This document shows, piece after piece, positions 47,913-53,173 of a DNA stretch of 64,000 nt. Where the stretch lies: NCBI GenBank assembly GCA_027489335.1, contig JAIXZX010000001.1:1-64000 (forward strand), written 5' to 3'. The notes under the pieces were generated by a model. It ran no database searches. It was given only the letters and a program-made list of their open reading frames with translations, and was not told where the DNA came from. The translations under genes were made by a program, and so were the position numbers. The number at the start of each line of letters is the position of its first letter. Positions within the stretch are counted from its first letter, which is position 1. Source of the DNA: Caulobacteraceae bacterium (GTDB lineage Bacteria; Pseudomonadota; Alphaproteobacteria; Caulobacterales; Caulobacteraceae).

Positions 47913-48929
47913 ATGGGTCATAAGCGACTGGGCCGCAGCGCCATCGTGGTGTCGGACATCTGCATGGGCACCATGACCTTCGGCGGCCAGGCCGACGAGG
48001 CCATGGCCCACCGCATCCTGGACAAGTCCTTCGAGGCCGGGATCAACTTCTATGACACGGCCGAGAACTATCCCGTGCCCCCCAGCCCCGAATGGGCCGG
48101 CCGCACCGAGGAGATCTTCGGCCGCTGGCTGAAGACCAAGAACCGCGACGCCGTCGTCGTCGCCACCAAGGTCTGTGGGCCGAGCCACGGCTGGATCAAG
48201 GGCTCCATGCGGGCCGGCATGACCGCGCTCGACCGCCACAACATCACCCGCGCCATCGAGGGCAGCCTGACCCGCATGGATGTGGACTATGTGGACCTCT
48301 ACCAGACCCACTGGCCCGACCACGGGACCGGCTATGAGGAGACCCTGCGGACCCTCGACGACCTGGTCCAGGCCGGCAAGGTGCGCATCATCGGCTGCTC
48401 CAATGAAACCAGCTGGGGCCTGACCAAGTCGGTGGCTGTGGCCGAGCGCGAGGGCACGGTGCGCTACGAGACCATCCAGAACAATTTCAGCCTGAATAAC
48501 CGCCGCTTCGAAGACGAGCTGGCCCAGGCCTGCCGGCAGGAGGGCGTCAGCCTGATCCCCTATTCGCCGCTGGCCGGCGGGGTGCTGTCAGGCAAATACA
48601 AGGACGGGGCGCGGCCCGAGGGCGCTCGGTTCTCCAACTATCTGAACCTGGGCGGGCGCCAGGCCGCCATGGCCAAGCGCTTCGTCAACGACAAGACCCT
48701 GGAAGCCACCGACCGCTTCGCCGCCATCGCCGCTGAGGCCGGCATCTCGCTGGTCACCCTGGCGACGGCCTGGAGCAAGCAGCACGACTTCGTCGCCTCC
48801 ACCATCGTCGGCGCCACCCACGAAGACCAGCTCCCCGACATCCTGGCCGCCATGGACCTGACCCTGAGCGACGAGGTGATGAAGGCCATCGACAAGGTGT
48901 CGAAGGACATTCTCTACCCCATGGGGTGA
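47913..48929 (+). CDS. Aldo/keto reductase
   Basis: 338 aa; MGHKRLGRSAIVVSDICMGTMTFG, NFYDTAENYPVPP, CSNETSWGL, IPYSPLAGGVLSGKY, C-terminus KAIDKVSKDILYPMG. Confidence 0.93.
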   Translation: MGHKRLGRSAIVVSDICMGTMTFGGQADEAMAHRILDKSFEAGINFYDTAENYPVPPSPEWAGRTEEIFGRWLKTKNRDAVVVATKVCGPSHGWIKGSMRAGMTALDRHNITRAIEGSLTRMDVDYVDLYQTHWPDHGTGYEETLRTLDDLVQAGKVRIIGCSNETSWGLTKSVAVAEREGTVRYETIQNNFSLNNRRFEDELAQACRQEGVSLIPYSPLAGGVLSGKYKDGARPEGARFSNYLNLGGRQAAMAKRFVNDKTLEATDRFAAIAAEAGISLVTLATAWSKQHDFVASTIVGATHEDQLPDILAAMDLTLSDEVMKAIDKVSKDILYPMG

Positions 48930-50614
48930 GAGGCGCCCTCGCCGATCCGCTCCATCATCTTTCGCCAGTACTTGAACGGCGCCAGATGGCCGGAGTCGAA
49001 CAGGGGTTGAACCTCAGTGACGTGCTCGCCGACGAAGGCGACCATGTCCTTCATCGGGCTGAACCGGTCGTCGACGCCGTGCCAGATCACCACCGGGGCC
49101 GTGATCCCGGTCAGATTCATGGTTTGGCCTCGCCGAAAGGCCGTCATCTCGTCGGCGATGCCGCGGCCGCCGTGGGCCAGACACTCGGTCACGTAGGCGA
49201 AGACAAAATCGACCATCTCCGGGTGGGCGTCGAAGTAGGCGCGATCAGCTTCGGAAAAGCTCGCCAGCCGCTTCAGGAGACGCCGCGCAAGATCCGGGGA
49301 CAACCGCATACGAAGGATCGCGTAAAAGGTCTCAACGACCCAGGGATGGCTTTCAAAGCGAGCGCGCAGTTCGCTGAGCGGGCTGAGGTTCTGTTCCACG
49401 GGCCGAGGCGGACGCCCGGCGAGGAGAAACACGCCCGTCGCCCGGTCACCCATCCTTTGGGCCGTGGCGAGGGCGAACGGGGCTCCGGACACCACGCCGC
49501 ACAGGGCGGGTCGGTGGAGTTCGAGCCGGTCGCAGAGTTGCTCCATGTCTTCTGCGACGGTCTCGAAGCGATAGTCGGCGCGGCGGTCCGACTGACCAAA
49601 GCCGGGGCGTTCGGCGCACACGACGCGAAGGTTGAGCGCGTTGGCCAGAGCATCGGTGCCGGGCGGCATGAGGCTTGAGCTCATGCCGCCGTGATAGATC
49701 AGCAGAGGTCGGCCAGATCGAGGTCCGTAGTCGCGGAAGGCGAGGCGGCGACCATCGGCGAGCTGTAGACTGCGGATCGGCGGGTCTTCCGTCACGGAGG
49801 ATGCCGACGTCGCCACCAGGCTGCGCCCCACCGCCGCCAGTTCCGTGAGCGTGCGGATGAGTTCGGACTGCCGTTTCAAGCCCATCTTGTCGAAGATCGC
49901 GCGCAACTGGTTGCGGACGGTGTTGACGCTGACCCCGAGCTCTTCGGCGGCTTCCGCCAGCGCCAATCCTTCTCGCAGCTTGGCGGCGAGCCGCAGCTCT
50001 GCGGCCGTCAAGCCGAAGCTCTTGCCGATGGTCCCCCAGACCTGGGCCTCGGGTTCGGGCGCTGGGAACATGAGCGCAAAGGCCGCAGGATTGCGCAGGG
50101 TGGAGCCGGCCAGCGCCGAGGAGTCGGCCACGTAGCAGAACACCGGCGCCCCGGCCGTCGGCCGCTCAAGGCGCAGGATGGCGTGTTGGCCCGACCGCTT
50201 CGCCTCCCCCAAGGCGCGCTGCAGCGCCTCACTGTTGTCAGGGTGGTGGAGCTGGAGTCTCGTCCCAACGGCGACGCTGGCCAAGTGCGGCTCGAGCACG
50301 CCGCGCGCCAGGGCGCAGCAGGCCAGGACCATGGCGCTGGGCGACAGCAGGACCAGGCCAACATCCTTGGCCTGCCCCTCCGGCGGTCCCTCCCCCTGCC
50401 GGCGGGCCAGGGCTGTGACCTTGTGTATGCCGTCGAGCTCAGCCGCCACCTGCTCTGGGAGCCCCGTCGTAGAGCGCGGGAGCTCAAGGGCGGAAATCAA
50501 CTGTTCCCAGGATTCCGGATGGGCGGCCAGCGCATAGAGGGTTTCGACCAGGAGGCGCGCGTCACCTTCCGGCCCGGTAAGCTTCGCTCGCCCAACATGC
50601 GCCACGGCGTCCAC
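48914..50614 (-). CDS. LuxR-type HTH fused to C-terminal alpha/beta hydrolase
   Basis: 566 aa; GLTAAELRLAAKLREGLALAEAAEELGVSVNTVRNQLRAIFDKMGLKRQSELIRTL then LIYHGGMSSSLMPPG, CGVVSGAPFALATA, VIWHGVDDRFSPMKD, DSGHLAPF. Confidence 0.88.
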   Translation of the reverse strand: MDAVAHVGRAKLTGPEGDARLLVETLYALAAHPESWEQLISALELPRSTTGLPEQVAAELDGIHKVTALARRQGEGPPEGQAKDVGLVLLSPSAMVLACCALARGVLEPHLASVAVGTRLQLHHPDNSEALQRALGEAKRSGQHAILRLERPTAGAPVFCYVADSSALAGSTLRNPAAFALMFPAPEPEAQVWGTIGKSFGLTAAELRLAAKLREGLALAEAAEELGVSVNTVRNQLRAIFDKMGLKRQSELIRTLTELAAVGRSLVATSASSVTEDPPIRSLQLADGRRLAFRDYGPRSGRPLLIYHGGMSSSLMPPGTDALANALNLRVVCAERPGFGQSDRRADYRFETVAEDMEQLCDRLELHRPALCGVVSGAPFALATAQRMGDRATGVFLLAGRPPRPVEQNLSPLSELRARFESHPWVVETFYAILRMRLSPDLARRLLKRLASFSEADRAYFDAHPEMVDFVFAYVTECLAHGGRGIADEMTAFRRGQTMNLTGITAPVVIWHGVDDRFSPMKDMVAFVGEHVTEVQPLFDSGHLAPFKYWRKMMERIGEGASHPMG

Positions 50615-50695
50615 CCCTTAGACACCCCATCTTAGGCGCCCTCCCGCGCGATGGAAATCGCGAACCCCAGGCCTGCGGGCTTTCAGCGGCGGGGG

Positions 50696-50740
50696 GCCAT
50701 CGACACGGTGTCGAAGGAGATTTTGTATCCGATGGAGTGA
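50696..50740 (+). pseudogene. Remnant of an aldo/keto reductase 3' end
   Basis: GCCATCGACACGGTGTCGAAGGAGATTTTGTATCCGATGGAGTGA = AIDTVSKEILYPME*, aligning to AIDKVSKDILYPMG* at the end of the 47913-48929 gene (7 mismatches in 45 nt, mostly at third codon positions). Confidence 0.7.
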
Positions 50741-50754
50741 GGGAGTTGCGACGC

Positions 50755-51222
50755 TCAGCCTCGGCGGAGCGCCGCGCCCCAGATGGCCAGATTGAAGGCG
50801 AACTGGCCGGGCTCGGTGGCCTCCACCCTTATGGCGATGGGCACCATGCAGGGGCCGACATGTTCGGGGATCGCGGCGTATTGGGTGACAACGCCGTCCA
50901 TGATCAGAGGCCGGATGATGTTCATGTCGGTGCGATACTTCAGCTCCTCCGCGAAGGGCGGAACATAGACGGTGTTCTCCGGCATGCGGGGGCCGCCGAA
51001 CTCCTCCGGCAGCAGCAGGAGCTCGACCAGCACCCCCTCCTCCACCAGGGCCTTGGCCTTCTCCGGTGAGTCCACATAGGACCAGTCCGGACCGACGGGG
51101 TCCCCCGGGCCGGGCTCATAGCCGGCTTCGCGGAGAAGCTGGTCGGCCAGCGCCTTGGCGTCATGCTCAGCCGGCGCGGCCGGGCCGAACCATCGGCGGA
51201 GTCGTTGAAAAAGATCGTTCAC
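50755..51222 (-). CDS. Hypothetical protein (155 aa)
   Basis: MNDLFQRLRRWFGPAAPAEHDAKALADQLLREAGYEPGPGDPVGPDWSYVDSPEKAKALVEEGVLVELLLLPEEFGGPRMPENTVYVPP; codon-consistent ORF. Confidence 0.65.
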   Translation of the reverse strand: MNDLFQRLRRWFGPAAPAEHDAKALADQLLREAGYEPGPGDPVGPDWSYVDSPEKAKALVEEGVLVELLLLPEEFGGPRMPENTVYVPPFAEELKYRTDMNIIRPLIMDGVVTQYAAIPEHVGPCMVPIAIRVEATEPGQFAFNLAIWGAALRRG

Positions 51223-51329
51223 GGCTAGCCCCCGGCCGCTGGATCACAGGTCTTTCTAAGCAGCCTCAGCGAAAATTCTGTCGGCGCATATCTAGCGAGA
51301 GCCAAACACTCTCCCCCCCATCACGCCGA

Positions 51330-52058
51330 CTACTTATCGGGGGCGCTTGGCGGGTCGAATAGGTCTGCGCCGCGATCCCTGGACGTGCGCTCCGCCTTCC
51401 CCGTCGCCTTTCGCGCGGCCTTTCGCTCACTATGGAGTTCGAATGCTGCGAGCAAGACGCTTAGGGCTTCTTCGAGTTCCTTCGCCGACACAGTCCCGAG
51501 TTCGTCGCCTTTGATAACGTCGACCTCTCGTCCGGCACGTGGCATCTTCTCCCGCAGATCCACCCACTCTAACGTTGCGTCTTTGAAGTCACCGACAAAG
51601 AAGGTCTGTCGGAGGATCGTATTGAAGATGGCCCGCTGGGCCGGATCGAGGGTGCGGCCTTTCCAGCACTGCGCCCACAGCACCCTAAGACGACCGTCCT
51701 CAACCCAGAAACCTGACGGCCGCACTGGGATGGATACGCCACTGCCGATAGGGAACAGGTACCGTTCGCACTCTCGGAACCAAGGCACCTTCTTCTCAGC
51801 GGCGTAGGGCGCGAATGCGGTTACTAGCCCCTTATTGGGGGCCACATTCTTCTTGTGCTTGTCAGCCTCGATCTGCCGCAATGCCCAGTCTAGCGTTTGG
51901 CCTTCCATCAACGGCTTGAACAGCTTCCGCCCCGGATCGAGGGAGAACGGAATCTGCGCTATGTCGAGCTTCTCCATCTCCAAGACGGTAGCCTCGATCG
52001 TGGGTCTGATCAGCGCCACGGCGTGCTGGACAGATGGGGTTTTGCGCAAATCGGCCAT
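51330..52058 (-). CDS. Unrecognised 242-aa protein downstream of Panacea gene; candidate toxin
   Basis: MADLRKTPSVQHAVALIRPTIEATVLEMEKLDIAQIPFSLDPGRKLF...; starts 6 nt after the Panacea stop; visibly less GC-rich than flanks. Confidence 0.8.
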   Translation of the reverse strand: MADLRKTPSVQHAVALIRPTIEATVLEMEKLDIAQIPFSLDPGRKLFKPLMEGQTLDWALRQIEADKHKKNVAPNKGLVTAFAPYAAEKKVPWFRECERYLFPIGSGVSIPVRPSGFWVEDGRLRVLWAQCWKGRTLDPAQRAIFNTILRQTFFVGDFKDATLEWVDLREKMPRAGREVDVIKGDELGTVSAKELEEALSVLLAAFELHSERKAARKATGKAERTSRDRGADLFDPPSAPDK

Positions 52059-52064
52059 ATGCGG

Positions 52065-52580
52065 TTACACACGCCTCCTTAGGATTTCGCGGTAGTAAGA
52101 CTCGGTCATCGAGTCTGGAATGACCATTCCAGGCATTGGTCGCCCCTCGGCAGCTGTCCAAACCTGATCCCACGGCGCTCCGGGCTCATGGGTTTTCTGA
52201 ACCAGCCAGTACGCAGACTTCGTTCCGTAGAACTTCGTCATTTGCTCGACGTGCTGGCGCTCTTGCTCGCCAAGAGATACTTCCAGAGGCACGTCCTGCC
52301 CCGTAGATAGATCAATTCGGGTCAGCCGCCCCACGATTGGTCTGTCACCATAGGTCCGAAGCTGTCGATAAACTTGCGGATGGACCGGGCCGTGCTGCCA
52401 AGCTTCGAACGCGGAGTCCACGAGCGGTTCGCCATACTGGGCAAGGTACCAAGCGTGCGCGAAGTAAATGATCTTGTTCAGGGGAAGGTTAGATAGAACC
52501 AAGCCGTTCGCCTCGGCCACGTCGAGGATGGCGTTTGCGATTTCCCTGACGTCTCTGGCCAAAAAAGGTCCTTGGGGCAC
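52065..52580 (-). CDS. Panacea-domain (DUF4065, SocA-like) protein; candidate antitoxin
   Basis: GTG start; FLARDVREIANAILDVAEANGLVLSNLPLNKIIYFAHAWYLAQYGEPLVDSAFEAWQHGPVHPQVYRQLRTYG is characteristic of the family. Confidence 0.92.
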   Translation of the reverse strand: MPQGPFLARDVREIANAILDVAEANGLVLSNLPLNKIIYFAHAWYLAQYGEPLVDSAFEAWQHGPVHPQVYRQLRTYGDRPIVGRLTRIDLSTGQDVPLEVSLGEQERQHVEQMTKFYGTKSAYWLVQKTHEPGAPWDQVWTAAEGRPMPGMVIPDSMTESYYREILRRRV

Positions 52581-52607
52581 GGCGGCCGCTGCGAATCTCC
52601 AGATACA

Positions 52608-52637
52608 ACCATAGTCGAGTTCGCGATATGTTCCAAC
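52608..52637 (-). promoter_or_regulatory. Candidate sigma70-type promoter for the Panacea operon
   Basis: Minus strand TTGGAA-N18-TATGGT, 28 nt upstream of the GTG start. Confidence 0.35.
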
Positions 52638-52783
52638 CGTCAGTTCGGTGTGGCCGCTGGTAGAATTGGGAGGCCGTCAACCCGATCGTCCTGCACCACA
52701 CCCGCTAGACGGCTCCCCCGCCCTGCCCCTAACGTCCGCGCCGAACCGCGGCATCATCTGCGGGCGTGAGAACGGGGAAACAC

Positions 52784-53173
52784 ATGTTCAATCACATCAT
52801 GGTCGGGACCAACGATATCGAGCGGTCCAAGGCCTTTTACGACGCCGTGCTGGCGACGCTGGGGGCCGGGCAGCCGATGGCCAATGCGGCCCCCACCGGG
52901 CACAAGCGGCTGTTCTACATCCACAACAGTTCGGTCTTCTGCGTCAGCGAGCCGATCAATGGCGAGCCGGCCACCTTCGGCAATGGCGGCACCATCGGCT
53001 TCAAGTGCGACAGCCCTGAACAGGTGAAGACCTTCCACGACGTGGCCGTGGCCCATGGTGGGGTCTCCATCGAGGACCCGCCGGGCCTGCGCGAGGGCGG
53101 CATGGGCGCCCTGCACCTGGCCTATGTGCGCGACCCCGACGGCAACAAGCTGTGTGCGCTCTACCGCCCGTAA
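52784..53173 (+). CDS. VOC (glyoxalase/bleomycin resistance) family protein
   Basis: MFNHIMVGTNDIERSKAFYDAVLATLGAG...GALHLAYVRDPDGNKLCALYRP. Confidence 0.92.
   Translation: MFNHIMVGTNDIERSKAFYDAVLATLGAGQPMANAAPTGHKRLFYIHNSSVFCVSEPINGEPATFGNGGTIGFKCDSPEQVKTFHDVAVAHGGVSIEDPPGLREGGMGALHLAYVRDPDGNKLCALYRP

What the first reader, a model, noticed from the sequence alone, without database searches (positions are those of the whole stretch)
51330..52580. Candidate new toxin-antitoxin pair: Panacea (SocA-like) protein plus unrecognised 242-aa partner
An antitoxin-first bicistron on the minus strand with a 6-nt gap. The upstream gene is a clear Panacea/DUF4065 protein. Panacea domains are established as widespread antitoxins paired with many unrelated toxins, and Caulobacter SocA is a member acting with SocB. 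The partner does not match a toxin family I recognise. The operon is visibly less GC-rich than flanks and lies beside a recombination scar, as expected for a mobile TA or defence module.
Basis: partly seen in the sequence, partly recalled or inferred. Interest (0 to 1): 0.78.

Follow-up and report, generated by a model that had tools for sequence, protein, structure and literature searches.

The report
Divergent SOS-controlled SocAB-like toxin-antitoxin pair
Two adjacent bacterial genes form a distant, previously uncatalogued version of the Caulobacter SocAB toxin-antitoxin system, whose toxin is predicted to jam the DNA-replication clamp and whose promoter carries a DNA-damage (LexA) switch, so damage probably turns on a replication brake.

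Summary
The bicistron is real: a Panacea/SocA-type antitoxin gene (52065-52580, better start TTG 52562), then 6 nt, then a 242-aa gene (51330-52058). The partner is not an unknown toxin type. It has no database hit, but a profile of it and its relatives matches a profile of bona fide SocB toxins (NCBIfam NF047746) with 98.6% probability, E 7e-16, over about 200 collinear columns; shuffled and reversed controls score under 1%. All 10 genomes found with a partner homolog have a SocA-like gene immediately upstream. In a Panacea tree, antitoxins with SocB-type partners form one clade (99/97); the window's branch (6 species) is separate from SocA proper. Both genes miss the curated SocA/SocB cut-offs, so this is a divergent branch, not a SocAB equivalog. 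New here: an exact LexA box (GAAC-N7-GAAC) between -35 and -10, conserved in 6/6 species of this branch, and a C-terminal beta-clamp-like motif (GADLF). The insert (~51242-52695) occupies a variable chromosomal site; close homologs sit in defence islands (Gabija, DarT) and by conjugation genes. Best reading: an SOS-inducible SocB-like replication inhibitor held by its Panacea antitoxin. Toxicity, clamp binding and LexA binding are untested.

The parts
52065..52580 (-). SocA-like Panacea antitoxin gene as listed (GTG start); preferred start TTG at 52562 (165 aa)
   Evidence: PF13274 70.4 bits; NF047745 164.6 bits, below cut-off 190; TTG/ATG at this position conserved in relatives with AAGGA (52569-52573) 6 nt upstream
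51330..52058 (-). SocB-like toxin candidate, 242 aa
   Evidence: No Pfam/NCBIfam/PADLOC/PHROG/PDB hit; profile-profile homology to SocB, prob 98.6, E 7e-16
51357..51371 (-). C-terminal GADLF (residues 230-234), beta-clamp-binding-like motif
   Evidence: L233 and F234 invariant in 6/6 relatives although the tail is otherwise variable; motif scores post hoc, 2 of 3 in a pre-registered check
52619..52633 (-). LexA (SOS) box GAACATATCGCGAAC
   Evidence: Exact match to the alphaproteobacterial consensus GTTCN7GTTC (PMC12700426, PMC4211646); exact box in 6/6 species of this branch
52608..52636 (-). Promoter-like TTGGAA (52631-52636), 17 nt, TATGGT (52608-52613), with the LexA box in and around the spacer
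   Evidence: Sequence reading; 8/12 match, below the scan threshold; the block is the most conserved part of the upstream alignment
51242..52695 (.). Inserted segment carrying the pair (approximate ends)
   Evidence: Flanks 84-97% identical in same-genus species, but the interval holds other DNA there
50755..51222 (-). Left flanking gene, 155 aa, no Pfam match
   Evidence: homologs at the same site in relatives
52766..53173 (+). Right flanking gene, glyoxalase/VOC family
   Evidence: PF00903, E 4.7e-10

Best explanation
The pair is a divergent, SOS-controlled SocAB-type toxin-antitoxin module. The first gene makes a Panacea antitoxin related to SocA; the second makes a SocB-homologous replication inhibitor. 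Shown by computation: antitoxin family, toxin homology to SocB, invariant pairing, conserved LexA box. Inferred: LexA represses the operon; after DNA damage both proteins are made; free toxin binds the DnaN sliding clamp, probably through its C-terminal D-L-F motif, and blocks replication elongation; the antitoxin binds the toxin and either inactivates it directly (as other PanA proteins do) or hands it to ClpXP (as SocA does).
For: SocA HMM E 1.7e-48. SocB profile (members up to 299 bits to NF047746) versus P0002-side profile: prob 98.6, E 7e-16, about 200 collinear columns; column-shuffled and reversed controls under 0.5%; among 122 window ORFs the SocB profile ranks P0002 first (29.5 against 19.2 for the next). 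Adjacent SocA-like gene in 10/10 genomes. Antitoxins with SocB-type partners form one clade, 99/97. Exact LexA box in 6/6 species of the branch with diverged spacers, expected about 0.01 per region. Invariant LF in a variable tail. dnaN is present in the genome. SocB acts on DnaN and SocA is a ClpXP adaptor (PMC5812544, PMC7566177); C. crescentus socB and socA rose 17- and 14-fold in a condition that induces SOS (PMC6120978).
Against: Both proteins fall below the curated SocA and SocB cut-offs, and P0002 has no direct HMM hit. GADLF lacks the glutamine of the consensus QL[SD]LF. SocB proper has an internal Q-x-D/E-L-F-like motif before the conserved Y/F-EEL helix that P0002 lacks, and its C-terminal motif is weaker or missing in some members. 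The exact LexA box is in only 1/9 SocB-proper loci. The C. crescentus SocB sequence itself was not available.
Confidence: 0.72

Rival explanations
1. A SocA/SocB-related pair whose toxin has changed target: same fold and ancestry as SocB, but not acting on the sliding clamp (for example another replisome protein), neutralised by direct binding.
For: P0002 lacks the internal LF motif of SocB proper; superfamily members are only about 13-20% identical. Panacea antitoxins are known to serve toxins with very different targets (PMC8832971).
Against: L-F (or M-F) conserved near the C-terminus across most branches, including three unseen loci (EPDLF, IVSLF, TIEMF).
Confidence: 0.3
2. The C-terminal LF tail is a degron or antitoxin-docking site rather than a clamp motif.
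For: SocB is degraded by ClpXP with SocA as adaptor (PMC5422525), so a conserved tail could serve turnover.
Against: The tails resemble the clamp pentapeptide (QLSLI, QPDFF, QPDLPF) rather than known ClpX C-terminal signals such as LAA (general knowledge).
Confidence: 0.2
3. The pair acts mainly as an anti-phage abortive-infection module, with SOS control as one of its triggers.
For: Nearest homologs lie beside GajA/GajB (E 4e-267, 4e-234), PDC-S21, DarT with ADP-ribosylglycohydrolase, and a GajB-like helicase; the window copy occupies a variable site.
Against: In the window it stands alone; in Ancylobacter and Bosea it sits at a conserved site between a hydrolase gene and proB. No phage data.
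Confidence: 0.3
4. Not a toxin-antitoxin pair: two neighbouring genes with an unrelated shared function.
For: No toxicity data.
Against: Invariant pairing in 10/10 genomes in unrelated contexts, SocA and SocB homology, compact insert with its own promoter-like element.
Confidence: 0.05

Closest known systems
SocAB, type VI toxin-antitoxin system of Caulobacter crescentus (NCBIfam NF047745/NF047746)
   Same: Panacea antitoxin first, about 240-aa toxin second, toxins homologous by profile comparison, antitoxins in one clade.
   Different: Both proteins below the curated cut-offs; separate branch in the antitoxin tree; exact LexA box in the promoter (6/6 against 1/9 in SocB-proper loci); no internal LF motif, instead a C-terminal D-L-F.
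PanAT modules (Panacea antitoxin with diverse toxins; PMC8832971, where SocB is cluster T10)
   Same: Panacea antitoxin plus adjacent conserved partner in an antitoxin-first bicistron.
   Different: Most partners near this clade in Alphaproteobacteria are small proteins of about 110-165 aa, unrelated to SocB. Whether this subfamily is one of their 88 clusters could not be checked (no access to the supplement).
RipA, sliding-clamp toxin of Streptococcus pneumoniae (PMC12795458)
   Same: Would act on the same target pocket if the clamp prediction holds.
   Different: That paper reports no sequence or structural homology between RipA and SocB; not compared here.

Membership tests
SocAB (type VI TA) equivalogs | Antitoxin over the NF047745 SocA cut-off (190 bits) | tested here: not met
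   164.6 bits, E 1.7e-48
SocAB (type VI TA) equivalogs | Toxin over the NF047746 SocB cut-off (210 bits) | tested here: not met
   No hit for P0002 or its relatives L009, L010, L019
SocB superfamily (broad, by homology) | Homology to SocB over most of the length | tested here: met
   hhalign prob 98.6, E 7e-16; controls negative
SocAB (type VI TA) equivalogs | Antitoxin gene directly upstream of toxin gene, same strand | tested here: met
   6-nt gap; same order in 10/10 genomes
SocAB (type VI TA) equivalogs | Toxin inhibits replication through DnaN | not testable with these tools
   Only a candidate motif, residues 230-234
SocAB (type VI TA) equivalogs | Antitoxin is a ClpXP adaptor for toxin degradation | not testable with these tools
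   Needs proteolysis assays
PanAT (Panacea toxin-antitoxin loci) | Panacea domain in the antitoxin | tested here: met
   PF13274 70.4 bits against cut-off 25.7
[quoted passage not shown]
PanAT (Panacea toxin-antitoxin loci) | Partner toxic and neutralised by the Panacea protein | not testable with these tools
   Needs expression assays
LexA (SOS) regulon | GTTCN7GTTC box in the promoter | tested here: met
   Exact box at 52619-52633; conserved in 6/6 species of the branch
LexA (SOS) regulon | RecA/LexA-dependent induction after DNA damage | not testable with these tools
   Needs expression assays

The most novel reading that the evidence does not exclude
A LexA-gated sliding-clamp toxin: a separate branch of the SocB superfamily that couples the SOS response directly to a replication brake, uses a C-terminal rather than an internal clamp motif, and travels through defence islands; more broadly, Panacea toxin-antitoxin loci on alphaproteobacterial chromosomes are often under direct LexA control.
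Probability: 0.4. Interest if true: 0.68.

Novelty: new variant of a known kind. Interest (0 to 1): 0.5.

Why it matters
SocAB is the founding example of a toxin that targets the sliding clamp and of an antitoxin that works as a protease adaptor, but few relatives are catalogued. This shows that SocB is the visible tip of a much more divergent superfamily that current models miss, predicts where the clamp motif lies, and links the branch to the SOS response by a conserved LexA box. The link is directly testable, as is the wider observation that 20 of 50 Panacea loci in alphaproteobacterial genomes carry an exact LexA box (no such link is mentioned in the one Panacea survey searched, PMC8832971).

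Tried and rejected
(1) Direct database searches of the partner: nothing. (2) AlphaFold2 on the four sequences allowed: pLDDT 43, unusable, so no fold search was run. (3) QIPFSL (residues 35-40) as the clamp motif: rejected, because it aligns with a conserved [F/I]-S-[Y/L]-x-P-x-R block and its Q is not conserved. (4) Phage or plasmid origin: no homolog of the partner in phages, plasmids or viral contigs. (5) Getting C. crescentus SocB itself: not in the collections used; the Caulobacter vibrioides control genome gave no SocA hit. (6) LexA boxes in Panacea loci on plasmids and phages: 1 of 10, an Azospirillum plasmid, none in the non-alphaproteobacterial ones. (7) Consensus promoter/terminator scan: nothing over threshold. 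(8) The first tail-motif test is post hoc; a pre-registered repeat gave 2 of 3 (9, 9 and 6.5 against a threshold of 7).

Full report
What is there. On the minus strand, a 171-aa gene (52065-52580) is followed after 6 nt by a 242-aa gene (51330-52058). The segment has 57-60% GC between flanks of 65-75%. The antitoxin probably starts at TTG 52562: homologs keep a T/ATG there, and AAGGA lies 6 nt upstream.

Antitoxin. It matches Panacea (PF13274, 70.4 bits) and the SocA equivalog model NF047745 at 164.6 bits, just under its cut-off of 190.

Partner. P0002 has no match in Pfam, NCBIfam, PADLOC, PHROGs or PDB sequences. Homologs were found in 7 of 299 Caulobacteraceae genomes including its own, in Ancylobacter oerskovii and Bosea sp. 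117, and in G341; the Brevundimonas mediterranea copy is one of the seven. All ten have a SocA-like gene directly upstream.

The partner is a SocB relative. Partners of antitoxins over the SocA cut-off match the SocB equivalog model NF047746 (299 bits for the best tested, 132-202 for four others). A profile of the P0002 side against a profile of these SocB proteins gives probability 98.6, E 7e-16, over about 200 collinear columns. Column-shuffled and reversed controls stay under 0.5%. The SocB profile ranks P0002 first of 122 window ORFs. In a tree of 43 Panacea proteins, those with SocB-type partners form one clade (99/97), SocA proper another inside it (100/99), and the window's six-species branch is well supported (100/98). 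So the pair shares ancestry with SocAB but lies outside the curated family.

Likely target. SocB binds the DnaN clamp and blocks elongation; SocA delivers it to ClpXP (PMC5812544, PMC7566177, PMC5422525). The consensus clamp peptide is QL(S/D)LF (PMC9690074). P0002 ends in GADLF-DPPSAPDK; relatives end in GPDLF, GTPLF, DLPLF, QPDFF, QPDLPF, QLSLI, HPDLF and SLDIF. In the six close relatives L233-F234 are invariant although the tail around them varies. A consensus score gave a combined P of 2e-12 over 17 tails, but this was designed after seeing them. A threshold was then written down and applied to three new loci: two passed (EPDLF, IVSLF) and one narrowly failed (TIEMF, 6.5 against 7; scored by hand with the table). 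SocB proper instead often carries an internal motif (QSDLF, QVELF, GVSLF) that P0002 lacks. Clamp targeting is therefore the leading but unproven guess.

SOS control. Upstream of the antitoxin, TTGGAA and TATGGT are 17 nt apart, and GAACATATCGCGAAC (52619-52633) lies between and partly over them, an exact alphaproteobacterial LexA box (GTTCN7GTTC; PMC12700426, PMC4211646). All six species of this branch keep an exact box at -56 to -83 from the start of the SocA-model match, with changed spacers and largely unalignable surroundings. Over 50 Panacea loci, 20 carry an exact box within 250 bp upstream, against 2 of 278 control windows from the same loci; shuffles of the upstream sequences expect about 0.3 in 44 (17 seen). 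Control windows are mostly coding and related loci are not independent, so the P value of 2e-16 is too optimistic; the shuffles deal with composition. Only 1 of 9 SocB-proper loci has the exact box. C. crescentus socB and socA rose 17- and 14-fold in a condition that also induced SOS (PMC6120978).

Context. In same-genus species the two flanking genes are 84-97% identical, but the interval holds other cargo (a 179-aa P-loop ORF in L073, a 166-aa ORF in L074); the insert here is about 51242-52695. The nearest homologs lie in defence islands or conjugative DNA: B. mediterranea beside GajA and GajB and then a type IV coupling protein and MobA relaxase; G112 beside PDC-S21, DarT with ADP-ribosylglycohydrolase and a UvrD helicase; G061 beside a GajB-like helicase. 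None was found in phages, plasmids or viral contigs.

Verdict. A divergent, SOS-controlled SocAB-like module. Shown: families, homology, pairing, LexA box, variable site. Inferred: toxicity, clamp binding, mode of neutralisation, role in phage defence. The structure model was unusable, and the C. crescentus SocB sequence and the supplement of PMC8832971 were out of reach.

Noticed in passing
Upstream of Panacea genes in L022, L023, L025, L026, L029, L031, L032, L035, L036, L038, L048: Exact LexA boxes also precede many Panacea genes whose partners are small proteins (about 110-165 aa) unrelated to SocB; over all partner types 20 of 50 loci have one, so direct SOS control of Panacea toxin-antitoxin loci may be common in Alphaproteobacteria.
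   Followed up: partly
48936-50694: A 566-aa gene (HTH plus alpha/beta hydrolase) is absent at this point in same-genus relatives; a 47-bp, 85% direct repeat (48884-48930 and 50695-50741), the 3' end of the neighbouring aldo/keto-reductase-like gene, flanks it.
   Followed up: partly
51242-52695 and L073, L074: Variable chromosomal site: between the same two flanking genes, different species carry the SocAB-like pair, a P-loop ORF, or a 166-aa ORF.
   Followed up: partly
L080 / L008 (Brevundimonas mediterranea): The homologous pair lies about 0.4 kb downstream of a complete Gabija system (GajA, GajB) on the same strand, beside a type IV coupling protein and a MobA relaxase.
   Followed up: partly
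48998 and 58155: Two further exact GTTCN7GTTC/GAACN7GAAC matches in the window, not examined.
   Followed up: no
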